64,000 bases of DNA from Paenarthrobacter aurescens TC1. Its GTDB lineage: Bacteria > Actinomycetota > Actinomycetes > Actinomycetales > Micrococcaceae. A program made the position numbers and the translations under genes. The notes beneath the pieces are model-generated. The model saw only the letters and a program-made list of their open reading frames with translations. It searched no databases and was not told where the DNA came from. The stretch covers positions 3,596,001 through 3,660,000 of the forward strand of contig CP000474.1 of assembly GCA_000014925.1 (NCBI GenBank), written 5' to 3'. Shown one piece after another: positions 2,146 through 15,996 of this stretch (the stretch's first letter is position 1; each line of letters starts with the position of its first letter).

Positions 2146-3108
2146 GTGAACAACCAACTCCCTGCCAAGGTTTCCGACGCCTTTGACCCTTCACGCTGGC
2201 GCACAGTTTCCGGCTTCGACGACTTCAAGGACATGACTTACCACCGGCAGGTTGAGCGTTCAACGGACGGCTCAGTCAAGGACCTTCCCACGGTCCGGAT
2301 CGCCTTCAACCGCCCAGAGGTCCGCAACGCGTTCCGCCCGGGCACCGTGGACGAGCTCTACCGCGCCATGGACCACGCCCGCATGACACCCGACGTCGCC
2401 ACGGTCCTGCTCACGGGCAACGGCCCGTCCGAGAAGGACGGCGGCCACTCGTTCTGTTCGGGCGGGGACCAACGGATCCGTGGCCGTGACGGATACCGCT
2501 ACCAAGTAGAAGGTGCTGCTGGGGACTCGGCTGAATTTATCGACCCCGCCCGCGCAGGCCGCCTCCACATCCTGGAAGTCCAGCGGCTCATGCGAACCAT
2601 GCCCAAAGTGGTCATCGCCGTCGTCAATGGATGGGCAGCCGGCGGCGGTCACTCCCTGCACGTTGTCAGCGACCTCACCATCGCCTCGCGCGAGCACGGC
2701 AAGTTCAAGCAAACGGACGCCACGGTGGGAAGTTTCGACGCCGGATACGGCTCTGCGCTGCTGGCCCGCCAGATCGGGCAGAAAGCCGCGCGGGAGATCT
2801 TCTTCCTCGCCCGTGAATACTCTGCCGATGACATGGTCCGCATGGGCGCTGTGAACGAGGCCGTTGACCATTCGCGGCTCGAGGAAGTGGCCCTGGAGTA
2901 CGCCGCGGACATCGCCCGCCAGTCACCGCAGGCCATCCGCATGCTCAAGTTCGCCTTCAACCTGGCTGACGACGGCCTTGCCGGGCAGCAGGTCTTCGCC
3001 GGCGAAGCCACCCGCCTCGCGTACATGACGGACGAGGCCGTGGAGGGCAAAGAAGCGTTCCTCCAGAAGCGCGACCCCGACTGGTCCAACTTCCCCTACT
3101 ACTTCTAG
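2146..3108 (+). CDS. menB: 1,4-dihydroxy-2-naphthoyl-CoA synthase
   Basis: MenB, of the crotonase superfamily, closes the second ring of menaquinone by converting O-succinylbenzoyl-CoA to 1,4-dihydroxy-2-naphthoyl-CoA in the cytosol. The 320-residue product has NRPEVRNAFRPGTVDEL (CoA pocket), SGGDQRIRG, the oxyanion-hole segment VNGWAAGGGHSLHVVSDLTIAS and the MenB-type ending DPDWSNFPYYF. The length fits the actinobacterial form with its extended N-terminus. The GTG start is set by the upstream TAGACT box and by homology of the N-terminus. It is followed 7 bp later by menE, so the two are probably co-transcribed. Confidence 0.96.
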   Translation: MNNQLPAKVSDAFDPSRWRTVSGFDDFKDMTYHRQVERSTDGSVKDLPTVRIAFNRPEVRNAFRPGTVDELYRAMDHARMTPDVATVLLTGNGPSEKDGGHSFCSGGDQRIRGRDGYRYQVEGAAGDSAEFIDPARAGRLHILEVQRLMRTMPKVVIAVVNGWAAGGGHSLHVVSDLTIASREHGKFKQTDATVGSFDAGYGSALLARQIGQKAAREIFFLAREYSADDMVRMGAVNEAVDHSRLEEVALEYAADIARQSPQAIRMLKFAFNLADDGLAGQQVFAGEATRLAYMTDEAVEGKEAFLQKRDPDWSNFPYYF

Positions 3109-3115
3109 GACCACC

Positions 3116-4258
3116 GTGAACATCGATCCTGTACTGAAAGCCCTGATGGCCGCCCTCCATGGCGAGGGCCCCGCCGTCGAAATCGTGGTGGACGAAAACG
3201 GCGAGCCGCAGGCGGTTCCGGTGGAGACCGGCGTCGACGACGCAGCAGTGGTGGTCCGCACGTCCGGTTCCACGGGGACGCCGAAGGCAACCATCCTCAC
3301 CGTTGATGCCCTCGCGGCCTCCTCAGTGTCCACTGCCGTGGCCCTGCGCGGCGAAGGCCAATGGCTGCTGGCACTCCCCCTGCAGTATGTGGCCGGGGTT
3401 CAGGTGCTGGTCCGTTCGCTGTATGCGGGCACGCGTCCGTGGGTCATGGACCAGTCGAACGGCTTCACGCCCGAGGCCTTCACTGCAGCAGCAGCAGAGG
3501 AACTCACGGACAAGATCCGTTTTACGTCCCTGGTACCCACGCAGCTCCAGCGGTTGCTGGACTCCCCCACGCCGGAAACCCTTGCCGTGCTGCGTCGCTT
3601 CGACGCGATCCTGCTGGGCGGCGCCCCAGCATCGGCTGAACTCCTTGCCACCGCCCACGCCGAAGGGCTCAAGGTTGTGACGACGTACGGCTCAGCCGAG
3701 ACCTGCGGCGGGTGCGTGTACGACGGCGAGCCGCTGGACGGCGTCGAGGTCCGGATCGGTGAGGGCGAACTGGAAGGCCGAATCCTGCTGGGTGGCGACA
3801 CCGTGGCGGCCGGCTACCTGGACGCCGCCCGCGCCTCAAAGGCAGCATTCGTCGAGGAAGGCGACGTCCGCTGGTACATCACCGGCGACCTCGGCGAGCT
3901 ATCCAACGACGGCAAACTCACCGTGCTGGGCCGCGCCGATGACGTGATCATCACCGGCGGCGTCAAGGCCTCGGCCGCATACATCCAGGGCAAGCTGGAA
4001 GAGCTCGACGGCGTCACTGCGGCTTTCGTGACCGGCGTCCCGTCGCGCGAGTGGGGCCAGGCCGTGGCAGCCTATGTTGCGGTGACCGATCCTTCGCCCG
4101 AGGGCCTGAAGGGATTCACTGCCCGCCGTGAGAAAGCATTGGGGGTCCTGGCGCCCAAGACGGTGCTCGCAAACAAGGAAATGCCGATGCTTCCGAACGG
4201 AAAGCCGGACCGCATGGCCATGATTGACCTGCTTTCCAATCTGCATCAGGGACAATAG
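3116..4258 (+). CDS. menE: o-succinylbenzoate--CoA ligase
   Basis: MenE is an adenylate-forming ligase that makes O-succinylbenzoyl-CoA, the substrate of MenB. The 380-residue protein shows the P-loop RTSGSTGTPKATIL near residues 43-56, the core motif TTYGSAETCGG near 186, the TGDL motif with the following GRADDVIITGG near 260-283, and a C-terminal lysine in LPNGKPDRM. It is short for the ANL superfamily, which is usual for actinobacterial MenE. The GTG start lies 7 bp after menB with a weak AGGA upstream, consistent with an operon. Confidence 0.94.
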   Translation: MNIDPVLKALMAALHGEGPAVEIVVDENGEPQAVPVETGVDDAAVVVRTSGSTGTPKATILTVDALAASSVSTAVALRGEGQWLLALPLQYVAGVQVLVRSLYAGTRPWVMDQSNGFTPEAFTAAAAEELTDKIRFTSLVPTQLQRLLDSPTPETLAVLRRFDAILLGGAPASAELLATAHAEGLKVVTTYGSAETCGGCVYDGEPLDGVEVRIGEGELEGRILLGGDTVAAGYLDAARASKAAFVEEGDVRWYITGDLGELSNDGKLTVLGRADDVIITGGVKASAAYIQGKLEELDGVTAAFVTGVPSREWGQAVAAYVAVTDPSPEGLKGFTARREKALGVLAPKTVLANKEMPMLPNGKPDRMAMIDLLSNLHQGQ

Positions 4259-4317
4259 ACAAGTTCTTCCCCCGAGCCTGACTAACGATCAACCGCGAAA
4301 TACACGAGGTACTACAC

Positions 4318-5199
4318 GTGGCGACAGCTGCACAATGGATTCAAGGAGCCCGGCTCCGCACACTGCCCGCGGCCATCGCGCCGGTCCTCATCGGTTCGGC
4401 AGCGGCGTACGAGCTTCAGGCTTTCCGGCTGCCGAACGCGATCCTCGCGGCACTCGTGGCTCTCCTGCTTCAAATCGGCGTGAACTACGCCAACGACTAC
4501 TCCGATGGCATCCGCGGCACCGATGAGGACCGAGTGGGTCCCCTTCGCCTGGTTGGTTCCGGCGCCGCGAAACCGGAGCAAGTTAAGTGGGCTGCGTTTG
4601 CCCTGTTCGGGGCGGCGATGATTTGCGGCCTGATCCTGGTGATCATTACCCAGACCTGGTGGCTGATCCTGGTAGGCATCGGCTGTGTCCTGGCGGCGTG
4701 GGGATACACCGGCGGCAAGAATCCCTACGGATACCTGGGCTTGGGCGACGTCTTTGTCTTCGTGTTCTTCGGTCTCGTGGCCACCCTCGGCACCACCTAC
4801 ACCCAGGCCGGCCAGGTCAGCCTCGCAGCGGTCATCGGCGCGATCGGTACGGGGCTCATCGCCTGCGCACTGCTGATGGCCAACAACGTCAGGGACATCC
4901 CCACGGACACGGCCGCCGGGAAGCGGACCCTGGCCGTCCGGCTGGGTGACCGCCACGCCCGCGAAAGCTACGTGTTGATGCTGGCCGTAGCCATCCTGCT
5001 GGTCATCGTCCTGGCACCCACCAAGCCGTGGATGCTGATCGTCCTGCTGCTGATCCCTGCGTGCCTGATGCCGGCGTGGCTCATGGTGAACGGCAAGAAG
5101 CGCAAGAGCCTCATCCCGGTCCTCAAGCAGACGGGCCTGATCAACCTCGGCTACAGCCTGCTGTTCTCGCTGGGACTGATCCTGAGCCGCGGCTTCTGA
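4318..5199 (+). CDS. menA: 1,4-dihydroxy-2-naphthoate polyprenyltransferase
   Basis: MenA is an integral-membrane UbiA-family prenyltransferase that attaches the polyprenyl tail to 1,4-dihydroxy-2-naphthoate, giving demethylmenaquinone. The 293-residue protein has about eight to nine membrane helices. It has the two Asp-rich motifs that bind Mg-diphosphate: NYANDYSDGIRGTDED near 58-73 and NNVRDIPTDTAAGKRTLA near 190-207. The GTG start at 4318 follows CGAGGT. The gene lies 59 bp after menE and is closed by a strong hairpin at 5227-5257. Confidence 0.95.
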   Translation: MATAAQWIQGARLRTLPAAIAPVLIGSAAAYELQAFRLPNAILAALVALLLQIGVNYANDYSDGIRGTDEDRVGPLRLVGSGAAKPEQVKWAAFALFGAAMICGLILVIITQTWWLILVGIGCVLAAWGYTGGKNPYGYLGLGDVFVFVFFGLVATLGTTYTQAGQVSLAAVIGAIGTGLIACALLMANNVRDIPTDTAAGKRTLAVRLGDRHARESYVLMLAVAILLVIVLAPTKPWMLIVLLLIPACLMPAWLMVNGKKRKSLIPVLKQTGLINLGYSLLFSLGLILSRGF

Positions 5200-5226: not shown

Positions 5227-5257
5227 AACGCCCCTAAGAAGCTCTCTTAGGGGCGTT
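5227..5257. terminator. Bidirectional terminator hairpin between menA and the DUF4229 gene
   Basis: A 13-bp perfect stem (AACGCCCCTAAGA with its complement) has a 5-nt loop. An A-tract at 5265-5272 lies beyond it on the plus strand. The two flanking genes converge here. Confidence 0.85.
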
Positions 5258-6122: not shown

Positions 6123-6725
6123 ATGGCCCAGCAAGCTGATGGATCACGGCAGTCACCTTCCTCCACACCATCAGCCAGCGGGCCCACATCACCCTCCGCA
6201 CCACCACCGCGACCAGGCATTTCCCTCTCCACTCCCCCGCCCATAGCGGCGGTTGTTCGGCCTCCCGGAGCCGCACGGTTGTCCCGCTCCCTGTGGGTGT
6301 CGAGCTTCGTGGCCGGAATCGCCGTAGTGGTGACAGGCTTTCTCGGCCGTGATTCCCACTTCGAACGCCTGAAGGGCGTCATCTCAGGCATGGTTCCCGA
6401 CGGCGACGCCGACGCTCTGGAGGGGGCCACCGCCGTCGTGTTCCTTGGCAGCCTCACCATGCTTGCGCTGGTGGTGGCCATGGAAGCGATCCTGCTGGCG
6501 GTCCTGTTCAGACGCCGCATCTGGGCTCGCTGGGCACTGGCCCCGTTGGTCCTCCTGCATGCAGTAGTCACGGTCATCACTGCCGACTTTGTGGTGACCC
6601 CAGGGACGGACGGGACCCTGACCATAGTGCTGTTGGCGGCCCAGTTCGTCCTGGCCGCGGCCGGCCTGATCCTGCTGTTCCTCCCGTCAACCACCAACTG
6701 GTTGCTCAGCGAACGGCGGGGATAG
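6123..6725 (+). CDS. Hypothetical four-helix membrane protein with Pro/Ser-rich N-terminus
   Basis: I do not recognise the family. Residues 1-45 are rich in Pro, Ser and Gln. Four hydrophobic segments follow: LWVSSFVAGIAVVVTGFLG, VFLGSLTMLALVVAMEAILLAVLF, WALAPLVLLHAVVTVITADFV and LTIVLLAAQFVLAAAGLILLF. It lies 6 bp after the PLDc_N gene and is probably co-transcribed with it. Its last 20 bases overlap the end of the convergent dynamin-like gene. Confidence 0.65.
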   Translation: MAQQADGSRQSPSSTPSASGPTSPSAPPPRPGISLSTPPPIAAVVRPPGAARLSRSLWVSSFVAGIAVVVTGFLGRDSHFERLKGVISGMVPDGDADALEGATAVVFLGSLTMLALVVAMEAILLAVLFRRRIWARWALAPLVLLHAVVTVITADFVVTPGTDGTLTIVLLAAQFVLAAAGLILLFLPSTTNWLLSERRG

Positions 6726-8181
6726 CGGCCAACATTCCTTCGCAACTACGGACCACCACGCGGCAAGCGTCCAGTGCGGCCGGCTCAGTGAGCGGGTTTT
6801 CCGCGATCAACCGCCAACGGTTCAGGCCGTTTCGTGCCGCCTCACTGATCTGCTCCGGGCTTGCCCCCGGATCCAAGCCCAACCTCAGGGGAGGCGTGCT
6901 GCCGCGTCCACCTACCAGCTGCTCAGCTTCCGCGGACAGCTCCGGAGTCAGGCTTGAGCCCTCAGTCCGCAGCGTTGCCAGGAGTTTCAATTCCCGGAAC
7001 TCGTGGGCGCCCGCCTGAAGTTTTTCCAAGTTTGCTTCGAGCAGCAGCGCGACGTCCCGTGGCGAATTGCGCAGCAAGGCGTCCAAACCCACGACGACGG
7101 CACGCGCCTTGAGTGCGTCCGCGCGCGTTTGGAACAAATAGGCGATGTTATCGAGCAGCTGGCCAAGGCCGCTGCGCCGTGAGAGCTCATGGGCCAGTTC
7201 CGTAGGATTGCTGATACCGCCCCGGATCAGGGCAACACCGAGGCGGATCCCGAACAGACCGAACCTCTCCACAAGGGACGTCTTTGCTGCCTGACCGAGT
7301 CCTTCGGGTTCGGTGGCGCGGACAAAGAGATCCGCTGACAGCATCAGCCTTTCCCTCTGTTTCCTGTCCATCTGCGCCAAAAGCTGCATGGCCTCGAAAT
7401 CGCCTTGGCGCATGGTCCGCGAACTCTGCGCCAGCAAGCCGGCAACCGGGACGACGCCCAGGGCAAGGGGCCTGAGGTTCTGGTCCCGGCTGTATCTATC
7501 GGCGATCACTGCGGCGGAAATGAGGGAGTCGATTCTTCCTGCGCCGATCTCATCGGCGCGGGACAGGACGGCCAAGGCATTGACGGTCCCGGATTGGCCC
7601 GCTGCGGTGTCCTTGAAGGATTCCAGGAACCGGACATCGGAGGCGTGGAGATGCCTCATGAGATAGATGACGGCATCGGCGGCCATGGGGGCGTCTTCGG
7701 GGAGGAGGAATTCCGTGGACCGGCCTGACACGTCGTGGGACAGCGAGGCGATCCCCGGCGTATCGATCAGCGTCAGCTCCCGCAGGCTGGCCGTTGGCCA
7801 GTCCACCACCAGCCGTTCCACATCCTCGGCCCTGACCTGTCCCAAGTTGAACACCAAGCGGCCATCTTCACGGGTGACAGGGAGTGCTTGCGGCTCCCCG
7901 ATGATGGGATGGAGCGTGATCCTGGGCGTGTGTCCGTAGCGGTACCACGTAACAATCCGCGTGCATTCCCCGGCATCAGTGGGCGCTATTTCCTCCCCGA
8001 TGATCGCATTGAGAAGCGTTGATTTGCCGGCTTTCACCATCCCGGCCACGGCTATGCGCAAAGGCCCTTCCAGCCTGCCCTCGAGTTCGTCCACCACCGC
8101 GAGAGCCGCTGCGTCGCCGTGGAAGATCTCCCTTGCTTGCCGGAGCAGGTCCGAGGCTCCGGCGATGCCCGTGTCGATCAT
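6706..8181 (-). CDS. Dynamin-like GTPase, second of a tandem pair (IniC-like position)
   Basis: The 491-residue large GTPase has G1 GMVKAGKS at residues 47-54, a switch-I Thr in APTDAGECT, G3 DTPG at 140-143 and G4 SRAD at 207-210. The rest is mainly helical and lacks an evident transmembrane segment, unlike its partner. Its start overlaps the stop of the 638-residue dynamin by 4 bp (ATGA), so the two are translationally coupled and probably form a heteromeric membrane-remodelling machine. The order IniB-like, dynamin, dynamin matches mycobacterial iniB-iniA-iniC. Orthology to IniC is inferred from position and domain type. Confidence 0.85.
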   Translation of the reverse strand: MIDTGIAGASDLLRQAREIFHGDAAALAVVDELEGRLEGPLRIAVAGMVKAGKSTLLNAIIGEEIAPTDAGECTRIVTWYRYGHTPRITLHPIIGEPQALPVTREDGRLVFNLGQVRAEDVERLVVDWPTASLRELTLIDTPGIASLSHDVSGRSTEFLLPEDAPMAADAVIYLMRHLHASDVRFLESFKDTAAGQSGTVNALAVLSRADEIGAGRIDSLISAAVIADRYSRDQNLRPLALGVVPVAGLLAQSSRTMRQGDFEAMQLLAQMDRKQRERLMLSADLFVRATEPEGLGQAAKTSLVERFGLFGIRLGVALIRGGISNPTELAHELSRRSGLGQLLDNIAYLFQTRADALKARAVVVGLDALLRNSPRDVALLLEANLEKLQAGAHEFRELKLLATLRTEGSSLTPELSAEAEQLVGGRGSTPPLRLGLDPGASPEQISEAARNGLNRWRLIAENPLTEPAALDACRVVVRSCEGMLAAIPAVR

Positions 8182-10094
8182 CCCGCCGGGACCGCCGAGG
8201 TCGCGGCGCCAGGGAGGGAGGTGGTGCCGGGCTGGGATCCAGTGTCGGGCCGGGAGACGGGCGGCTCTTCGAGCAGCTGCTGAGCGGACTTGGCCAGGGC
8301 GTCAACGGCTTTGAGCTGGTTCCGTATCTCTTTGATTCTCATGTCCCGCTCCACCGCGTACGTAGCTGCCGCTTTCTGCGCGGCCGCCACGGATTCCGTC
8401 AGGGAACGGTGGTGCTCCTCGGCAATCTCCGTGAAGTGGTCCCGCGTGGCCCGCTGGACCAACCGCAGCCTGTCCTTGAGCTGTTTGCCCACTTGGAACA
8501 CCACATCATCCACGTGCTTTCGGACCAGGACTTTGGCTTCTGATTGCCGTTGCTTGAGTCGGGCCTCTTTGTCTTCCCTAAATGCTTTGCGTCCCAACAT
8601 CAGGCCTGCTCCAACGGACAGCGGGTTGATGAGGGCCATACCGAAAATGCCGGTGAGCAGGCCAAACATCAGCACGCCGCCGTAGGACCCCCGCATCCCT
8701 ATCAGCACCTTCTGCAGAGGCCCCAGCCGGCCGTCTTCCATGTGCTGAATGTCGGCCACGGGGTCCAGCACGCCGCCGGTATCGGACACTTTCAATGCGG
8801 GGAGGGCCACCTCCTCTTCTGAGAAGTGCTCCGCAACCTGTGTGGCCAACCATTGAGCACGCTCGCTGGTCCACACGAAAGTATCTGAAACCGCTGCCGC
8901 CGTGCTCTGTTCCAGCCATTGCGTGAACTGCTCCCACGCGGGTCCAGGATCGCCTTGCTCAATGGCTGTTTCGGCCTCGCGTTGAATCCTGCGTAGCCGG
9001 TCCCTCAGGTCGTACTCCATGTCGGCGATCAGGTCACCGATGCCATCGTTGAGCGTTATCTGCCACCGCGCGGAGCGTTTGCGCAGCGCATCGGCATCCT
9101 CCTTGGCCGCATTCAGGCCGGCGATCATCTGCGGTGTTCCTGCCGGATTTTCCAGGGCTCCAAGTTCCGACTGCAGGGCGAGCCTGAGGTTATCGGTGAC
9201 GGACAAGAGGTCGTTGCTCACGGATCTGCGTTGCATTCTGGCCGCCCCGCCCACAATGTTGTTCCGCACATGGCCGATCAACGCCGGGAACCCTGATTCG
9301 GCGTTCAGTTCCGGGTCCTGCAGCCGCGCCGCATGCAGACGAAGTTCCGAGGACACCGGAAACAGCGGAATATCGGGCCCGACGTCAGCCAGGTGCCTTT
9401 GATCCAGGTCCGCGATCTGGCGCCACGCGGGGTAAAGGTCCGTTTTGGACAATACGCACAGGACGTTCGGGCTGATGCGCATCGCCTGACGCAGAAACCG
9501 CATTTCCGGCTCGGTGAACTCCTGGGAAGCATCGGAGACGAACACCATGGCGTGCGCCGAGGGCAGCGCAGTCAAGGTGGTCAGTGTGTGTGTTGAGCCC
9601 AGGCCGCCAACGCCTGGAGAGTCCACGATTGTCAGGCCCCCGGACAACAGTTTCCGGGGCAGGGAAACCTCGGCTGCCACGATGTTCTTCGTGTTGCCCG
9701 GGTTGCCCTTTTCGGAAACGTATTCCGCGAGTTGTTCCAGCTGCACGGGTTGCCGTTCCAAGCCGTTCTCGGATCCGCCGGTCTCACCTTCAGCCTCGGG
9801 TCCGGTACCGTCCTTCCTGGGAACCAGGACAACGGCCGACGCCGGGTCCCCCTGCCGTACGACGGTAGGGACGGAGGTGGCGATGTCGTCATCAACGGGG
9901 CAGACCGGTGCGTTCACCAAGGCGTTGATGAGCTGGCTCTTTCCCTGCTTGAACTCACCCACCACGATCACCCGAACGCTTGGATCCCGCAGGCGGTTGA
10001 GGGTGTTTTCCAATCGGCGACGGAGGTCGTTCCGGTCCCCCACCAGCGCCATGCCCTGCTCCGCCAAGGTGGTCATGCGTCCTGTTTCCGCCAC
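8178..10094 (-). CDS. Dynamin-like GTPase with central membrane segment (IniA-like position)
   Basis: The 638-residue bacterial dynamin-like protein has G1 GEFKQGKS at 46-53, G3 DSPG at 158-161 and G4 SKTD at 216-219. After a helical stalk there is a hydrophobic hairpin near 470-505 (GVLMFGLLTGIFGMALINP, then GAGLMLG) that should insert in the membrane as the paddle does in dynamin-like proteins. A coiled-coil helix and a Pro/Thr-rich tail follow. Mycobacterial IniA has been shown to remodel membranes. The GTG at 10094 has AAAGGA upstream; an ATG at 10076 is an alternative. A 12-bp hairpin separates it from the IniB-like gene. Confidence 0.87.
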   Translation of the reverse strand: MAETGRMTTLAEQGMALVGDRNDLRRRLENTLNRLRDPSVRVIVVGEFKQGKSQLINALVNAPVCPVDDDIATSVPTVVRQGDPASAVVLVPRKDGTGPEAEGETGGSENGLERQPVQLEQLAEYVSEKGNPGNTKNIVAAEVSLPRKLLSGGLTIVDSPGVGGLGSTHTLTTLTALPSAHAMVFVSDASQEFTEPEMRFLRQAMRISPNVLCVLSKTDLYPAWRQIADLDQRHLADVGPDIPLFPVSSELRLHAARLQDPELNAESGFPALIGHVRNNIVGGAARMQRRSVSNDLLSVTDNLRLALQSELGALENPAGTPQMIAGLNAAKEDADALRKRSARWQITLNDGIGDLIADMEYDLRDRLRRIQREAETAIEQGDPGPAWEQFTQWLEQSTAAAVSDTFVWTSERAQWLATQVAEHFSEEEVALPALKVSDTGGVLDPVADIQHMEDGRLGPLQKVLIGMRGSYGGVLMFGLLTGIFGMALINPLSVGAGLMLGRKAFREDKEARLKQRQSEAKVLVRKHVDDVVFQVGKQLKDRLRLVQRATRDHFTEIAEEHHRSLTESVAAAQKAAATYAVERDMRIKEIRNQLKAVDALAKSAQQLLEEPPVSRPDTGSQPGTTSLPGAATSAVPAG

Positions 10095-10136
10095 GGTCTG
10101 TCCTTTGCTCTGCCAGCCTCGCCGATGAGGCCACGA

Positions 10137-10172
10137 AGTGCCCGGCAGACGGTTTGCCGCCTGCCGGGCACT
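10137..10172 (-). terminator. Stem-loop between the IniB-like gene and the dynamin pair
   Basis: A perfect 12-bp inverted repeat (AGTGCCCGGCAG and its complement) has a 12-nt loop and lies in the 133-bp gap. No T-tract follows on the minus strand. It may attenuate read-through or protect the upstream mRNA end rather than terminate fully. Confidence 0.6.
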
Positions 10173-10227
10173 GCTGGGGGTAACGCGTTGTGCTTCTTGT
10201 TGTTACATCGTGTGGAACTCGTTGGTG

Positions 10228-11649
10228 CTAGTCGATTTCCACATCGTTCTTGGCGACGACGATCGAATCGTCGATGTCGTTGTACTCCACATCCACGTCG
10301 AGTTCGTTGTCGGCGATGACCGTGTTGTCCTCCACGTTGGTGTATTCAACATCCAACTCGTTGTCTTGGACAACCGTGGAATCGTAGTTGACCTGGACGT
10401 CTTCGACATCGATTTCCTTGGAGTTGTCGATCTCCAGCTCGTTGTCCTGGATCACCGTGGAGTCGTAGTTGACCTGCACGTCTTCCAATTCCACGTTGGT
10501 GGAGTGATCGTTGGTGTACTCCAGATCCACCTCGTTGTCCTTGATGATGGTGGAGTTCTCGATGTTCGTGTACTCCACGTCCACGTCGCCGACTTCCAGT
10601 TCGGTCTCGTTGTTGTAGGAGTCCTTGTTGAACGAATCCGTGTTGTGGATATTGGTGTGCGAATTGTCCACCGAGTTGTCCTCGTTGAAGGAGTCCTCGA
10701 TGTCCACGTCAACGTCGACGTCCGTGTTGTAGGAGTCCTTGGTCACGGAGTTATCGGAGTTGTCGTTGAACGAATCCTTGATCTCGATGTCCGTGTTGCC
10801 GACCTCAACGTCGCCAGGGCCCGATTCATTGATGTTGAACGAATGATCGTCGGTGTTCGTCGTTGTTGTAGTGGTTGTTGTAGTGGTGTTGCCGGAATCC
10901 CGAACATCGTCGCCGGCTGCAATTGCACCATCGCCGGAAGCAATGACGGCCTCATTGTCGAACAACTGGACTACGTCACCGTCGGCCCAGATGTTCTGGT
11001 TGACCGACTGGTCAGTAATCGTGTCGCGGTCGTCGATCGTGGTGGTGTACGAGTAGTTGTTTACTACGTGGACCAGCTGCTGGACGGCATGTGCATGGTC
11101 GTCCCAGTCACCGCCACCGCCGCCGCCGTGGCCGCCGCCGTCATGATCGTCGTCGTCATGGCCACCCCAGCCACCACCGCCACCGCCGTGTCCGCCACCG
11201 TCATGATCGTCGTCGTCATGGCCACCCCAGCCACCACCGCCACCGCCGTGTCCGCCACCGCCATGATCGTCGTCGTCATGGCCACCCCAGCCACCACCGC
11301 CACCGCCGTGTCCGCCACCGCCATGATCGTCGTCGTCATGGCCACCCCAGCCACCACCGCCACCGCCGTGGCCGCCACCGCCATGATCGTCGTCGTCACG
11401 GCCACCCCAGCCACCCGTCGATGCGTGGTTGCCGCCGGTGTTGTATTCGCGGTCGAAGGACGAGCGGGCGTTGATGGGTGCGTAGTCGAGGACCACCGGG
11501 CGAACGGCGTCGACGTCGGCCGAAGAGACGTCACGGAGGCCGGCCGCTGCGAGCGCTGCTTCGGGATCCCGTACGAATTCTTCGGCTGCTTCAGGATCGT
11601 TGAACAGGCTCATCAGGAACTGCACGAGCTGTTGTGCGAGTGTAGGCAT
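10228..11649 (-). CDS. IniB N-terminal domain protein with Gly/His/Asp tandem repeats
   Basis: The 473-residue product starts with an IniB-type domain (residues 1-50: MPTLAQQLVQFLMSLFNDPE, then EEFVRDPEAALAAAGL), a short helical module like those of mycobacterial IniB. Residues about 82-182 are five near-identical 20-residue units of the type HDDDDHGGGGHGGGGGGWGG. The C-terminal half is very acidic and built from short Val/Asp/Asn/Tyr strands such as DVQVNYDST and QDNELDVEYTN, suggesting a repetitive beta structure. No signal peptide is visible. GAGGG precedes the ATG. Function is unknown; the His/Asp repeats suggest metal or surface binding. It heads the IniB-dynamin unit. Confidence 0.85.
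   Translation of the reverse strand: MPTLAQQLVQFLMSLFNDPEAAEEFVRDPEAALAAAGLRDVSSADVDAVRPVVLDYAPINARSSFDREYNTGGNHASTGGWGGRDDDDHGGGGHGGGGGGWGGHDDDDHGGGGHGGGGGGWGGHDDDDHGGGGHGGGGGGWGGHDDDDHDGGGHGGGGGGWGGHDDDDHDGGGHGGGGGGDWDDHAHAVQQLVHVVNNYSYTTTIDDRDTITDQSVNQNIWADGDVVQLFDNEAVIASGDGAIAAGDDVRDSGNTTTTTTTTTTNTDDHSFNINESGPGDVEVGNTDIEIKDSFNDNSDNSVTKDSYNTDVDVDVDIEDSFNEDNSVDNSHTNIHNTDSFNKDSYNNETELEVGDVDVEYTNIENSTIIKDNEVDLEYTNDHSTNVELEDVQVNYDSTVIQDNELEIDNSKEIDVEDVQVNYDSTVVQDNELDVEYTNVEDNTVIADNELDVDVEYNDIDDSIVVAKNDVEID
11101..11400 (-). repeat. Five copies of a 60-bp coding tandem repeat
   Basis: Five consecutive 60-bp units are almost identical at nucleotide level and keep the reading frame, each coding one 20-residue Asp/His/Gly block. 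The few differences are synonymous or exchange Asp for Gly at one position. High DNA identity implies recent expansion or homogenisation. Confidence 0.95.
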
Positions 11650-11687
11650 TGGAGTGCTCCCTCAAATTCTGTGATGGATAATGATTC

Positions 11688-11707
11688 GCCCGGCGCCTTT
11701 GCCGGGC
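11688..11707 (-). terminator. Weak hairpin between the LuxR-type gene and the IniB-like gene
   Basis: A 7-bp stem GCCCGGC/GCCGGGC has a 6-nt loop and lies in the 174-bp gap upstream of the IniB-like start. No T-tract follows. It could limit read-through from the regulator gene. Confidence 0.35.
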
Positions 11708-11823
11708 TTGAATCCAAACTATTGCCGGGGTTGGGGACCGGGCATCGGGGGTGGTCCCCCTACCGGCTGCCTCACCGTTAGGGGATGGTGTGGTTTTGCG
11801 TTAGGGGGTGGAGGGGGTTGCCG

Positions 11824-13908
11824 CTACGGAGGCGGGTACCCCTCCCCCAACGCCAGGCGGAGACGGACCAAGAGTTCAGAGCGGTTTTCGGCGCCCAAGC
11901 GCCGGCGCATGCGTGCCACGTGGTGTTCTGCCGTGCGGGGCGAAATGTAGATGGCCTCGCCTATTTCCCGGTAGGTCTTGCCCTCCAGGATGAGCCGGGC
12001 CACTTCCCGTTCCCTGGCGCTAAGCCCTGAAGAATCAGGGTTCCCGGGACCACCTCCGTTGTCCATGACGGACGGGGCGACGACGGCGGTGTGGACATCC
12101 TCCTGCCGCTCTGAAGCTCCGCCGGACGGAGCCGCACTTTGGGGGTGGATGTCCCTGGCGCAAGCCAGCAGTTTCACCATGTCGCGCCGTTCGTCCGCAT
12201 GCGCTGCGGCGTGGCCCGCCAAACGCGCGCCTTCCCAGGGCATCCCGACGGCCGCCAACCCGCGGGCCGCTGTTTCGACGTCGGACGCTTCGAAGCGGCC
12301 AGCCAGGACAGACACCCAGGCCTTGCCTCCAGCGGCGAGCACGGACGCCAGATGGCTGTGTTCCGATGCCCGCACCAAGGCTGCCGCGTGCGGTGCAAGA
12401 CCGGCCGGGTCCTCGCTCAGCAACGCCGCCTGCACGGCCGCCCAGTGCAGCGGCACTGACCACAAGGGCGGGTTGCCCAGCCTTCCCAGCAAGTCCCAAG
12501 CACCCTCCACATAATGCGAAACTCTCCTGGATTCCCGCAATCGCGCCGCGGTGATCATCAGTTCACCCCACGGCAGAAGGCTGTAGAGATCCACGGAGAC
12601 GTGCATCATCGCTTCGCGGGCCTTGTCCCACGCCAGCACAAGCTCGTGCACATCACTGCCCCGCCGGGCCAGGCCTACGTCCAAGGCCGCCAACAAGAAT
12701 TCATCCCGGGGCGCCAAGGGCCAGTGGTTGGCCTTGACGGCCTCGTTGATGGCCAGGCGTGCCTCGTCGGCGTTGTCCTGCTGCATGGAAGACCATGCCC
12801 TCAGCAGGAACAGCCGGGGACGGGCAGCATCGCCGCCTTGGCCTCCAGCCAGCGCGGCTTTGAGCACTGTGTCCGCTACCCCCGGTTCCCCGCTGTGCAG
12901 GGCGCATAAGGCGGCCAGCGCGCTGGGTGTCTCCGGCAAGGGGATCGAGGTACCTGCCGCGTTCATCATGTCCGAGGCCCTGATGAGTTCAGGCAGCGCA
13001 AGTTCGGGTGCGGGCCCCAAGGTTTGGCGCAGCCCTTCCTGCGTCAGTGACAAAGCCACTGCCAGGAGCGTCGGCGAACCACTCGGCGGAGCAACTGCCA
13101 GCAACTCTTCGGCACCCACAGAATTTCCCGAACCGATCATGGCCACCGCAGCGAGCGGGGCCGAACCGTCGATCCTGTCTGATCCCAGCCAGCTGTAAGT
13201 ATCGGCGCTCCGAGACAACATTCCACGCTGCGCCCAGACCGCGGCCGCCACATCCACTCCCAGGCGAAGGTCGGGCGGCTCAGGCATCGCGAGGAGTCGA
13301 TCCACGATCCTGCCTGCGGAGTCCAGGTCACCGGTGGCCGCTGTGGCCTGGGCGCGCCTGGCAGCTGTGTCCAATTCTGTTCCCCCTGCCATGAGGGCTT
13401 CGGAGTAGAGCTCGGCGGCCTGTGCTGGGTCGGTTTCCAGTACAGCGTCGGCAGACCGTTCGAGCTCAGCCACAACACGGGGGTTTTTGAACCCACTCCT
13501 CGCAAGGTCCCGGGCTAACTCCCCCAACGCCTGACCCTCCTGGAGAGTCTTGTCCACCAGTTCTTTCTGGAGCGCGCGGATGCGGGCAGTGGGTGTTCCC
13601 TTCAGCAGGGCGTACCGTGCAGTACCCACCACGGACCCGTCCGGTGAGAGCAGCCCGGCGTCCTTGGCTGCGGCAATGATCGAGTCCAGCCCTCCATGGT
13701 CCACCAGGTGGTGGTCTCCCAGGCTGTCAGGCAGTGGCGACGGGATGGAGAACCCCACGGACAATGCCAAGAGCAGCTCGCGGACTGCCGCAGTCGCGCC
13801 CGTCAGCGTGGGAGCAATATCTGTGCCCCGGGTCTCTGTGGTCTGGTTCAGGGGGTGATCGTCTGCCGCGGGCCGAAAGTGCCCGGGCGTATGGTCCTGT
13901 CCCGTCAT
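11824..13908 (-). CDS. LuxR-family transcriptional regulator with long helical-repeat N-terminus
   Basis: The 694-residue protein has a C-terminal LuxR/GerE helix-turn-helix near residues 627-690 (LSAREREVARLILEGKTYRE, then ISPRTAEHHVARMRRRLGAENRSELL). The first 600 residues are Ala/Leu-rich helical repeats resembling the TPR-like arm of large LuxR proteins. I see no Walker A motif, so it is not a classical LAL/MalT ATPase. It lies 3 bp after the Hsp70-like gene and upstream of the IniB-like gene. It is therefore the likely regulator of the IniB-dynamin unit, with the Hsp70-like protein as a possible sensor or partner; that role is inference. Confidence 0.85.
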   Translation of the reverse strand: MTGQDHTPGHFRPAADDHPLNQTTETRGTDIAPTLTGATAAVRELLLALSVGFSIPSPLPDSLGDHHLVDHGGLDSIIAAAKDAGLLSPDGSVVGTARYALLKGTPTARIRALQKELVDKTLQEGQALGELARDLARSGFKNPRVVAELERSADAVLETDPAQAAELYSEALMAGGTELDTAARRAQATAATGDLDSAGRIVDRLLAMPEPPDLRLGVDVAAAVWAQRGMLSRSADTYSWLGSDRIDGSAPLAAVAMIGSGNSVGAEELLAVAPPSGSPTLLAVALSLTQEGLRQTLGPAPELALPELIRASDMMNAAGTSIPLPETPSALAALCALHSGEPGVADTVLKAALAGGQGGDAARPRLFLLRAWSSMQQDNADEARLAINEAVKANHWPLAPRDEFLLAALDVGLARRGSDVHELVLAWDKAREAMMHVSVDLYSLLPWGELMITAARLRESRRVSHYVEGAWDLLGRLGNPPLWSVPLHWAAVQAALLSEDPAGLAPHAAALVRASEHSHLASVLAAGGKAWVSVLAGRFEASDVETAARGLAAVGMPWEGARLAGHAAAHADERRDMVKLLACARDIHPQSAAPSGGASERQEDVHTAVVAPSVMDNGGGPGNPDSSGLSAREREVARLILEGKTYREIGEAIYISPRTAEHHVARMRRRLGAENRSELLVRLRLALGEGYPPP

Positions 13909-13911
13909 GGG

Positions 13912-15996
13912 TTAGACCGCCGAGAGCAGCGCTGGATCCGGAGTAGGGCTGGTTTCCGCTGGTGAAGGTGCCGGGTCCGGGGTGACCGGCGGTGTGGTCT
14001 CCTGCGGCAGAGTTGGTTCCGGTGACGGCGGCGGAGGGTCCTGGACCACTGTGGGCTCGGGCTGCGGTGCAGGGGGTTCCGGCGATGGTGGTGGAGTAAC
14101 TGGATCTGCCGGAGTGGTAGGCGGTGTTGTTGGCTCGATGACCGGTGGCGTCGTGGGCTCAACCACCACCGGTGGTGTGGTGGGAGGCGGAGTGCTCGGA
14201 TCGGGTGTTGGTCCGCTCGCGGCACCTCCTGTGGGATCAGGGGCCGGGGTTGTTGGCGGCGTCTGCGTGCCTGGGGCCTGGGTGCCCGGCACGGTGGTCC
14301 CCGTTCCCGGGGCGGCCGGCGCGGTGGTGCCCCCTGTCTCGCCGGCGACTGTACCAGCGGTGGTGCCGCCAGCGCCCGCCCCTGCAGTGATCCCTGAACC
14401 GGTGCTCGCGCTGCCTGTCCCCGCGTTCGCTGCACCCGAATTCGTTGTTCCTTGCCTGACCGGAGCCCGTCCGTTGGATCCAGCCCTCGTGACCCCGGCC
14501 TTGGCGCTCGCTTCGAGCCCCGCAGCCGGTCCTCCCATCACGGGCGCCGAACCGGCGGCGCCTCCTGCAGCGCTGCCGCCCTGCGCACCGGAAGCCTGCG
14601 CACCGGAAGCTTGCGCACCGCCGTCGCGCATGACATCGGCCGCTTGGTTTCCGAACACGGTTGCCAGCAGTCCGGTGCCTTCGGGGCTCTGTGCTGCCGT
14701 GGCGGTGGCGATGGTCAGCGCGGTTGCGGCCGCAGCGGCTGCTGCTGCCATGCGGACCCGGGGCCGTGGGGCGTGCCGACCGGGCTTGGCCGACGCCGCC
14801 TTGGGGTGGCTGAATGCCGGAACCCGGCCCGGGACGTGCGGCCTCCCGCCAGCAACGGAATCCTTGGACGCGGAAGCCAGGGTTGGAGCGCCGGCCGCGG
14901 CATCCACGGCACCCGCCCCGCTGGAACGCAGACCAGCTACGGCAGCACCAAGGCAAATGGACGATTTGGGATCGGCGTCCACGGCTATGGGACGGTCCAG
15001 TTCCACGGAAATCAGCTCTGCCACGAGTGGAATCCGGGACGATCCGCCGATCAGCAGCACGGCGCTCAGGTCCTGGGCTCCAAGGTTGATGCTCCCCAGG
15101 CTGCGTTCAAGGGCGTCCACTGTGTCCCGGACCGGGGCCTCGATCATCGCCTCGAACTCGGAACGGACCAGCCTCACGGACAGCTGGGTGCCGGGCAGGG
15201 AGACAGCAACGCTGGCTTCGCTGTCCAGGGACAGCGCTTCCTTGGCTTCCCGGCATTCCCGCCGCAACCTGGACAGGGCGGCCAACGTCCCGGGAGAACC
15301 CGGATCCATCACCGCAGCGTCACCAACATGACCCATCACGTGGCGCAGGACGGCGGCGTCGAAATCGGCGCCGCCAAGGGTTTCAATGCCGTCCGGACGG
15401 CCCAGTAGTTCAAAGTTCCCGGCTCCGGCCTTGCGCAGGACGGCGGTGTCGAAAGTACCGCCGCCCAGGTCATACACCGCGATGATGCTGCCGTCCTCAA
15501 CACGCTTTTGGGAGGCGTAATGAAGGGCTGCCGCTTCCGGCTCGCTGATCAGGGTGATGTCCTGCAGACCCGCCATGTTGAGCGCTGCCAGGACCAGGGA
15601 GGTGCGGTGCTGCCCCCATGCTGCGGGGTACGTCATGATGATCGACGACGGCGCGCTTCCCTCGCGCTCTTCGGCCTTGTCCACCACCCAACGGGCCATG
15701 GTGGCATACACGTCTTCTGGGGCCAGCCAGCTCTCACCGACAGCGAGGGGAACGGAGTCACCTATCCGGCGTTTGAACTCCCGCACCATGCGCTGGGGGT
15801 CGTCCAAGCCGCGACGTTCGGCCGCTTCGCCAACCAGGATCCTGCCGTCGTCGGCATAAAACAGCACCGAGGGCACGGCGCTGCCGTGCAATCCCAGCGA
15901 AAGAATTTCAGGGGTCGGAGCGGGTCCTTGCTGGGGTTTAACAAGGGCTGCGGCTGTAAAACTTGTCCCGACGTCAATGGCGAGAACATAGCTCAT
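13912..15996 (-). CDS. Truncated Hsp70 ATPase fused to a transmembrane helix and a Pro/Thr-rich tail
   Basis: Residues 1-355 form an Hsp70/actin-type ATPase: phosphate 1 loop DVGTSFTAAAL (8-18), phosphate 2 loop DLGGGTFDTAVL (176-187) and adenosine motif LLIGGSSRIPLV (314-325). The DnaK substrate-binding domain is missing. A basic linker (residues 393-415) leads to one Ala-rich transmembrane helix (about 416-436). The remaining 250 residues are low-complexity Ala/Gly, then Pro/Thr, and would be outside the cell if the ATPase is cytoplasmic. This looks like a membrane-anchored ATP-dependent sensor rather than a chaperone. It is the first gene of the unit with the LuxR-type regulator. Confidence 0.85.
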   Translation of the reverse strand: MSYVLAIDVGTSFTAAALVKPQQGPAPTPEILSLGLHGSAVPSVLFYADDGRILVGEAAERRGLDDPQRMVREFKRRIGDSVPLAVGESWLAPEDVYATMARWVVDKAEEREGSAPSSIIMTYPAAWGQHRTSLVLAALNMAGLQDITLISEPEAAALHYASQKRVEDGSIIAVYDLGGGTFDTAVLRKAGAGNFELLGRPDGIETLGGADFDAAVLRHVMGHVGDAAVMDPGSPGTLAALSRLRRECREAKEALSLDSEASVAVSLPGTQLSVRLVRSEFEAMIEAPVRDTVDALERSLGSINLGAQDLSAVLLIGGSSRIPLVAELISVELDRPIAVDADPKSSICLGAAVAGLRSSGAGAVDAAAGAPTLASASKDSVAGGRPHVPGRVPAFSHPKAASAKPGRHAPRPRVRMAAAAAAAATALTIATATAAQSPEGTGLLATVFGNQAADVMRDGGAQASGAQASGAQGGSAAGGAAGSAPVMGGPAAGLEASAKAGVTRAGSNGRAPVRQGTTNSGAANAGTGSASTGSGITAGAGAGGTTAGTVAGETGGTTAPAAPGTGTTVPGTQAPGTQTPPTTPAPDPTGGAASGPTPDPSTPPPTTPPVVVEPTTPPVIEPTTPPTTPADPVTPPPSPEPPAPQPEPTVVQDPPPPSPEPTLPQETTPPVTPDPAPSPAETSPTPDPALLSAV

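What the first reader, a model, noticed from the sequence alone, without database searches (positions are those of the whole stretch)
6706..15996. Five-gene minus-strand locus: membrane Hsp70-like ATPase, LuxR regulator, IniB-like repeat protein and two dynamin-like GTPases
The order IniB-like, dynamin, dynamin matches mycobacterial iniBAC, which responds to cell-wall stress. Here it is preceded by a substrate-domain-less Hsp70 fused to a transmembrane helix and by a large LuxR-type regulator, only 3 bp apart. I infer an envelope-stress circuit in which the membrane ATPase senses and the LuxR protein switches on a membrane-remodelling pair. I know of no described role for the Hsp70-LuxR pair with these GTPases.
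Basis: partly seen in the sequence, partly recalled or inferred. Interest (0 to 1): 0.85.

Follow-up and report, generated by a model that had tools for sequence, protein, structure and literature searches.

The report
iniBAC locus with membrane Hsp70 partner
A soil bacterium of the Arthrobacter kind carries a relative of the mycobacterial membrane-repair operon iniBAC, whose regulator has lost its own ATPase and is encoded next to a membrane-anchored Hsp70-like ATPase; the same pairing recurs in many actinobacteria, so it may be an overlooked switch for sensing envelope damage.

Summary
The five genes are real, at the stated coordinates and in the stated order. The "large LuxR protein" is a relative of IniR, the activator of mycobacterial iniBAC, that keeps the MalT-domain-III-like solenoid and the LuxR HTH but lacks the whole N-terminal AAA+ ATPase. 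The genes after it are an iniB-iniA-iniC operon. The Hsp70-like gene (NBD, TM helix, Pro/Thr-rich tail) lies directly upstream of iniR in 73 of 73 usable named loci (7 of 80 dropped) and in 118 of 120 loci of a Mycobacteriaceae-type family. New here: a box, CCCCTA(A), repeated upstream of iniB in 146 of 175 loci, 6.7/kb against 0.11/kb elsewhere; its direct-repeat form occurs once in the 5.2-Mb host genome, at this promoter. So control of iniB by the LuxR protein is well supported by sequence. That the Hsp70 senses stress and gates IniR is inferred; a strict rule "Hsp70 replaces the lost ATPase" fails in one family. The only earlier mention I found is one sentence on a dnaK-like gene beside iniR in M. 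smegmatis. Verdict: new variant of a known kind.

The parts
13912..15996 (-). hsp70-like gene: Hsp70 NBD (about 1-358) with catalytic motifs intact, one predicted TM helix (414-434), Pro/Thr/Gly/Ala-rich tail; no substrate-binding domain
   Evidence: PF00012 159.7 bits over 88-358; motifs KRRIG, DLGGGTFD, GGSSRIP; AlphaFold model mean pLDDT 57.5, NBD mostly 70-90, tail low; the 50 Foldseek rows shown are all Hsp70-type
11824..13908 (-). iniR-like gene: MalT-III-like helical solenoid and C-terminal LuxR HTH; N-terminal AAA+ ATPase missing
11650..11823 (-). iniR-iniB spacer, candidate iniB promoter: boxes CCCCTA at 11807-11802 and 11784-11779, TAGGGG at 11762-11757 (read on the minus strand); by eye a -10-like TAGTTT at 11721-11716 and a GCCCGGC/GCCGGGC hairpin at 11707-11688
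   Evidence: direct repeat unique in the genome; box rates. The -10 and hairpin are read by eye, not tested
10228..11649 (-). iniB-like gene: IniB N-terminal domain (7-55), Gly/His/Asp-rich tandem repeats, Asp/Asn/Thr-rich C-terminal part
   Evidence: NF038175 73.2 bits, cut-off 40; no Pfam match; repeats seen in the translation
8178..10094 (-). iniA homologue (dynamin-like GTPase)
   Evidence: 467.6 bits to solved M. smegmatis IniA 6j72 over 14-601; Dynamin_N 75.5 bits
6706..8181 (-). iniC-like gene (second dynamin-like GTPase, overlaps iniA by 4 nt)
   Evidence: Dynamin_N 51.5 bits; matches the iniC-position gene of Mycobacterium-like loci at 366-372 bits (L077, L078)

Best explanation
This is an ini (iniBAC) envelope-stress locus: hsp70 and iniR are made together as a sensor/regulator pair, and iniBAC is the output. 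Shown by sequence: the regulator is an ATPase-less IniR relative; iniB-iniA-iniC follows it; a CCCCTA(A) box is repeated upstream of iniB in many actinobacteria; an Hsp70 NBD with TM helix and Pro/Thr-rich tail is a near-constant neighbour of IniR. Inferred: IniR binds the boxes beside a weak promoter and activates iniBAC; the Hsp70 tail lies outside the membrane and reports on the state of wall or membrane; the cytoplasmic NBD, through its nucleotide state, holds IniR at the membrane and frees it under stress, as DnaK acts on sigma-32 or HspR and MalK on MalT (analogies recalled); IniA and IniC then remodel or repair the membrane. Where IniR keeps its AAA+ domain there would be two nucleotide switches in series; in the window only the Hsp70 one is left. 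The sign (restraining rather than activating) is a guess.
For: IniR homology and MalT-III fold. Hsp70 directly upstream of iniR: 73 of 73 usable named loci, 118 of 120 loci of the Mycobacteriaceae-type family, 30 of 31 same-genus loci, stop-to-start distance -14 to +34 nt in 153 of 155 (the start codon was chosen near the stop, which favours short gaps). Every one of 36 named and 24 Mycobacteriaceae-type ATPase-less IniR genes has it. Boxes: 146 of 175 loci, and of 22 named loci without one after iniR, 14 have one upstream of an iniB lying elsewhere. Direct repeat unique in the genome, in line with IniR controlling iniBAC alone in M. tuberculosis (PMC5760070 abstract). IniR and IniA co-occur: 14 of 15 genomes with IniR against 7 of 282 without.
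Against: No direct evidence that Hsp70 touches IniR or that the tail is outside. In deep-branching loci and in L080 and L128 the Hsp70 gene is not beside iniR; L070 shows none in 17 kb, G720 none in the 2.7 kb upstream. In the Mycobacteriaceae-type family all 119 Hsp70 score as non-catalytic, none shows the catalytic Lys, so nucleotide hydrolysis cannot be the general switch. Boxes do not occur upstream of hsp70 in the window. Three named loci with iniB have no box (L289, L312, L324).
Confidence: 0.5

Rival explanations
1. Hsp70 is an effector of the membrane machinery, not a signal protein: a membrane-tethered NBD that assembles or disassembles IniB or dynamin structures. IniR senses stress by itself.
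For: Hsp70 sits divergent from iniB or beside iniC rather than beside iniR in the deep-branching loci and in L080 and L128; uncoating by Hsp70 is known for clathrin (recalled).
Against: Near-constant tight coupling to iniR, not to the dynamin genes, in 73 of 73 named and 118 of 120 Mycobacteriaceae-type loci; no substrate-binding domain; in the window hsp70 is not under the boxes.
Confidence: 0.25
2. IniR alone senses a metabolite such as trehalose through its MalT-III-like solenoid, as proposed for mycobacteria; the Hsp70 neighbour is ancillary.
For: Trehalose activates iniBAC and IniR overproduction suffices in mycobacteria (PMC5760070 abstract and section 11); the solenoid matches MalT domain III.
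Against: IniR that lost its ATPase never lacks the Hsp70 gene in the loci that could be judged; whether IniR binds trehalose is left open by its authors (section 17).
Confidence: 0.15
3. Strict ATPase swap: the Hsp70 ATPase has taken the place of the lost IniR AAA+ switch, one intact ATPase being required.
For: Outside the Mycobacteriaceae-type family 38 of 38 ATPase-less IniR have a catalytic Hsp70 and 16 of 16 degenerate Hsp70 have a P-loop IniR (some genomes counted twice; two of the 16, L279 and L306, are partial alignments).
Against: 24 Mycobacteriaceae-type loci have ATPase-less IniR and Hsp70 without the catalytic Lys; the independent-pairs test on the tree shows no association.
Confidence: 0.05

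Closest known systems
Mycobacterial iniR-iniBAC (Boot et al. 2017, PMC5760070; abstract, sections 10, 11, 17 and passages read)
   Same: IniB, IniA and IniC homologues in this order; IniR-type regulator with MalT-III-like solenoid and LuxR HTH; box arrays of the same kind upstream of iniB in Mycobacterium-like loci
   Different: AAA+ ATPase of IniR absent; Hsp70-like gene with intact catalytic motifs directly upstream; host of the Arthrobacter kind, which by general knowledge has no mycolate outer membrane (recalled)
MalT / STAND regulators of the LuxR family (MalT recalled; fold)
   Same: Solenoid fold like MalT domain III, LuxR HTH, repeated short boxes in the target promoter (MalT boxes recalled)
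   Different: No P-loop NTPase, which is the switch of that class
Hsp70/DnaK acting on a transcription factor (DnaK-sigma32, DnaK-HspR; recalled)
   Same: Hsp70 NBD encoded with a stress regulator
   Different: No substrate-binding domain; membrane helix and Pro/Thr-rich tail instead

Membership tests
iniBAC operon | IniB N-terminal domain | tested here: met
   NF038175 73.2 bits, cut-off 40
iniBAC operon | IniA orthologue next to iniB | tested here: met
   467.6 bits to 6j72 over 14-601; P-loop Ser and lipid-loop Arg-Lys conserved, the residue I count as IniA R63 is Pro here (the offset of 2 is my count)
iniBAC operon | second dynamin-like GTPase (IniC) coupled to iniA | tested here: met
   4-nt overlap; 366-372 bits to the gene in the iniC place of L077 and L078
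iniBAC operon | induction by cell-wall stress | not testable with these tools
   needs expression data
IniR (NCBIfam equivalog NF038181) | curated score of 750 bits | tested here: not met
   364 bits
IniR (NCBIfam equivalog NF038181) | N-terminal AAA+ ATPase domain | tested here: not met
   profile matched from position 258 on; absent in alignment A1
IniR (NCBIfam equivalog NF038181) | MalT-III-like domain | tested here: met
IniR (NCBIfam equivalog NF038181) | binds and activates the iniB promoter | not testable with these tools
   boxes are indirect support
STAND ATPases | P-loop NTPase | tested here: not met
   no AAA match and no Walker A before the core in any of 31 same-genus frames except one chance GPANMGRS; none in the window protein
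Hsp70 chaperone (DnaK) | Hsp70 NBD with catalytic motifs | tested here: met
Hsp70 chaperone (DnaK) | substrate-binding domain | tested here: not met
   PF00012 ends at profile 375 of 599; tail modelled as disordered
LuxR quorum-sensing receptor | autoinducer-binding domain | tested here: not met
   Pfam gave GerE, a weak TPR_19 and a weak Sigma70_r4_2 only

The most novel reading that the evidence does not exclude
An Hsp70-family NBD has been turned into a transmembrane envelope-stress sensor that gates a MalT/IniR-type activator across the actinobacteria; it is the missing sensor of the ini response, and in ATPase-less lineages such as the window's it is the only nucleotide switch left.
Probability: 0.33. 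Interest if true: 0.85.

Novelty: new variant of a known kind. Interest (0 to 1): 0.62.

Why it matters
How envelope damage reaches IniR is open; the authors who found IniR ask whether it senses trehalose at all (PMC5760070 section 17). A near-constant membrane Hsp70 neighbour and a defined candidate operator make the question directly testable in harmless soil bacteria. It also recasts iniBAC, known from mycobacteria under isoniazid, as a module spread over many actinobacterial families, and gives a case in which a MalT-like regulator lost its ATPase several times.

Tried and rejected
Hsp70-IniR fusion in L284: an artefact of an N run in the assembly.

Strict ATPase swap: fails in the Mycobacteriaceae-type family and in the pairs test.

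Wider regulon by inverted boxes: CCCCTA-N4-30-TAGGGG lies at 7 places in the genome, as often as the backward control. For the direct repeat the backward control found 8 and the true pattern 1, so the finding is its uniqueness, not an excess over that control.

First trees: (85 rows) set L073, L075 and L201 wrongly, as one search showed; one search leaves 14 loci out by name, L073 and L075 among them. The line 'canonical P-loop: 0' is a script error (gap signs not removed); I read the printed P-loops by eye. The Lys column of an own-genome DnaK is misplaced by one; the motif search served as a check.

TM count: of the 123 frames above 1.6, at least two (L132, L153) are not convincing TM helices; the two below are one genome (L067, L116).

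PMC9659744 (LuxR genes of Arthrobacter sp. UMCV2; abstract, section 15 and passages): no mention of Hsp70, IniB or dynamin in the main text. Search gave mostly unrelated papers. Foldseek on the regulator listed TPR proteins, not MalT, in its 50 rows; MalT came first only in the VIA re-alignment.

Full report
1. What is there. Five minus-strand genes occupy 15996-6706. Gene 1 (694 aa) is an Hsp70 nucleotide-binding domain with the catalytic motifs intact, no substrate-binding domain, a helix at 414-434 and a long tail modelled as disordered (mean pLDDT 57.5, NBD mostly 70-90). The 50 Foldseek rows shown are all Hsp70-type. Gene 2 (694 aa) starts 3 bp later. Gene 3 is IniB-like; genes 4 and 5 are dynamin-like GTPases that overlap by 4 nt.

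3. Genes 3-5 are iniBAC. IniB_NTERM 73.2 bits. Gene 4 matches solved M. smegmatis IniA (6j72) at 467.6 bits over 14-601, with the P-loop Ser and the lipid-loop Arg-Lys kept and the residue that I count as R63 changed to Pro. IniA binds membranes and cuts them in vitro (PMC6715688, passages and section 8). Gene 5 matches the gene in the iniC place of two Mycobacterium-like loci at 366-372 bits.

4. Distribution. The IniR-like protein is in 34 of 61 same-genus genomes (E <= 1e-20) and 15 of 297 of the order (E <= 1e-25). In the 297 order genomes 14 of 15 with IniR have IniA (E <= 1e-60), against 7 of 282 without (Fisher p 5e-18; the genomes are related, so p is too small). The nearest to the window are Paenarthrobacter and Arthrobacter. 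Named and unnamed sets overlap (L292 and G794 share a contig length), so counts are not independent.

5. Hsp70 is a near-constant neighbour. It lies directly upstream of iniR in 73 of 73 usable named loci; 7 of 80 were dropped for contig ends, N runs or broken frames (L269, L284, L288, L293, L301, L313, L318). All five genes are seen in 65 of 73, both dynamins in 69, IniB in 68. In the Mycobacteriaceae-type family it is there in 118 of 120 loci with more than 3 kb upstream; in the two others (L080, L128) such a gene stands beside iniC instead. In the genus 30 of 31; the exception is a short locus that still shows the Hsp70 tail. In the deep-branching loci it is in the locus but divergent from iniB or beyond the dynamin pair; in L070 none was found in 17 kb, and G720 has none in the 2.7 kb upstream. 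Of 125 frames outside the genus 123 have a hydrophobic stretch above 1.6 after the NBD, mostly with Arg/Lys on its N side and a P/T/S/A/G-rich tail (at least two of the 123 are not convincing). N-in, C-out is inferred.

6. Two ATPases that decay separately. The IniR AAA+ domain is intact, decayed at the P-loop (Lys to Thr, or a GTDASARP-like remnant) or gone. Outside the Mycobacteriaceae-type family 38 of 38 ATPase-less IniR have a catalytic Hsp70, and 16 of 16 degenerate Hsp70 have a P-loop IniR. Inside it all 119 Hsp70 score as non-catalytic and none shows the catalytic Lys (one gap), with 83 intact, 12 decayed and 24 absent AAA+ domains. The pairs test shows no association. So Hsp70 hydrolysis is not a universal switch, but the Hsp70 gene is kept whenever the IniR ATPase is gone.

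7. The box. The iniR-iniB spacer holds CCCCTAAC twice, 23 bp apart, and TAGGGG 22 bp further. CCCCTA/TAGGGG runs at 10.8/kb there in Micrococcaceae against 0.135/kb in the rest of the loci, and at 5.76 against 0.049/kb in Microbacteriaceae. Over all loci 146 of 175 have a box, 6.70 against 0.108/kb; of five control words four stay under 0.9/kb, and the fifth, ATCCCC, which overlaps the extended box, reaches 5.25 against 0.407/kb. Of the 29 loci without, 22 are named: in 14 of these a box lies upstream of an iniB placed elsewhere (divergent from hsp70, or further down), 3 have iniB without a box (L289, L312, L324), and in 5 no iniB was seen. In nine Mycobacteriaceae-type genera with four or more loci a word of the box is among the 14 most enriched 7-mers upstream of iniB. 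Boxes, single to triple, also occur upstream of iniB in deep-branching loci. In the 5.2-Mb genome the direct repeat (N12-20) exists once, here. IniR of M. tuberculosis binds directly upstream of iniBAC and controls only that operon (PMC5760070, abstract and section 11). That IniR binds this box is my inference.

8. Mechanism. Best reading: hsp70-iniR is the standing sensor/regulator unit and iniBAC the induced output; boxes are absent upstream of hsp70 in the window. Tail outside, NBD inside and the IniR solenoid as the contact are inferred. The sign (I favour a restraint that holds IniR at the membrane) is a guess from DnaK-sigma32, DnaK-HspR and MalK-MalT, all recalled. The main rival is an effector role of Hsp70 on dynamin or IniB structures.

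9. Prior print. Searches: iniBAC+IniR, IniB/Hsp70/dynamin/LuxR, iniBAC+dynamin, promoter and motif terms, Rv0339c/IniR/CCCCTAA, Hsp70-like/MalT/LuxR/STAND, Arthrobacter/iniB/dynamin. Found: the sentence that M. [quoted passage not shown] In the papers I looked into (PMC5760070, PMC6715688, PMC13413693 and PMC9659744; parts only) I saw neither the box, nor an ATPase-less IniR, nor the spread of the Hsp70 pairing. PMC13413693 (passages only) describes another regulator, HpoR, at a different palindrome of the BCG iniBAC promoter. Most subscription journals are not held.

Noticed in passing
window 5231-5253: A CCCCTAAGA...TCTTAGGGG hairpin between convergent ORFs looks like a terminator and only by chance holds the box word.
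   Followed up: partly
window 11649-10228: The IniB-like protein carries Gly/His/Asp tandem repeats (GGWGGHDDDDH-type) that might bind metal.
   Followed up: no
L174-L236, many Mycobacteriaceae-type loci, directly downstream of iniR: A second Hsp70-like gene follows iniR in several genera, often only about 390 aa with a weak partial match and a TM helix; in some Mycobacterium-like loci it is about 580 aa. Some listed frames are spurious.
   Followed up: partly
G033 C1:151938-153866: A second IniR-like copy, 51% identical to the window's, in a genome that also has the close one.
   Followed up: no
L068: Tandem IniR paralogues: a second AAA-bearing frame at 2809-4389 behind the first.
   Followed up: no
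L303: A record titled Planococcus sp. holds an ini locus whose iniB start region is nearly the same as that of a Microbacterium (L326); probably a mislabelled or contaminated assembly.
   Followed up: no
L284: An apparent Hsp70-IniR fusion frame that is due to an N run.
   Followed up: yes
G711, G726, G794 and others, IniA matches: The genome search reports an in-frame TGA within several IniA matches; perhaps alignments running past the stop.
   Followed up: no
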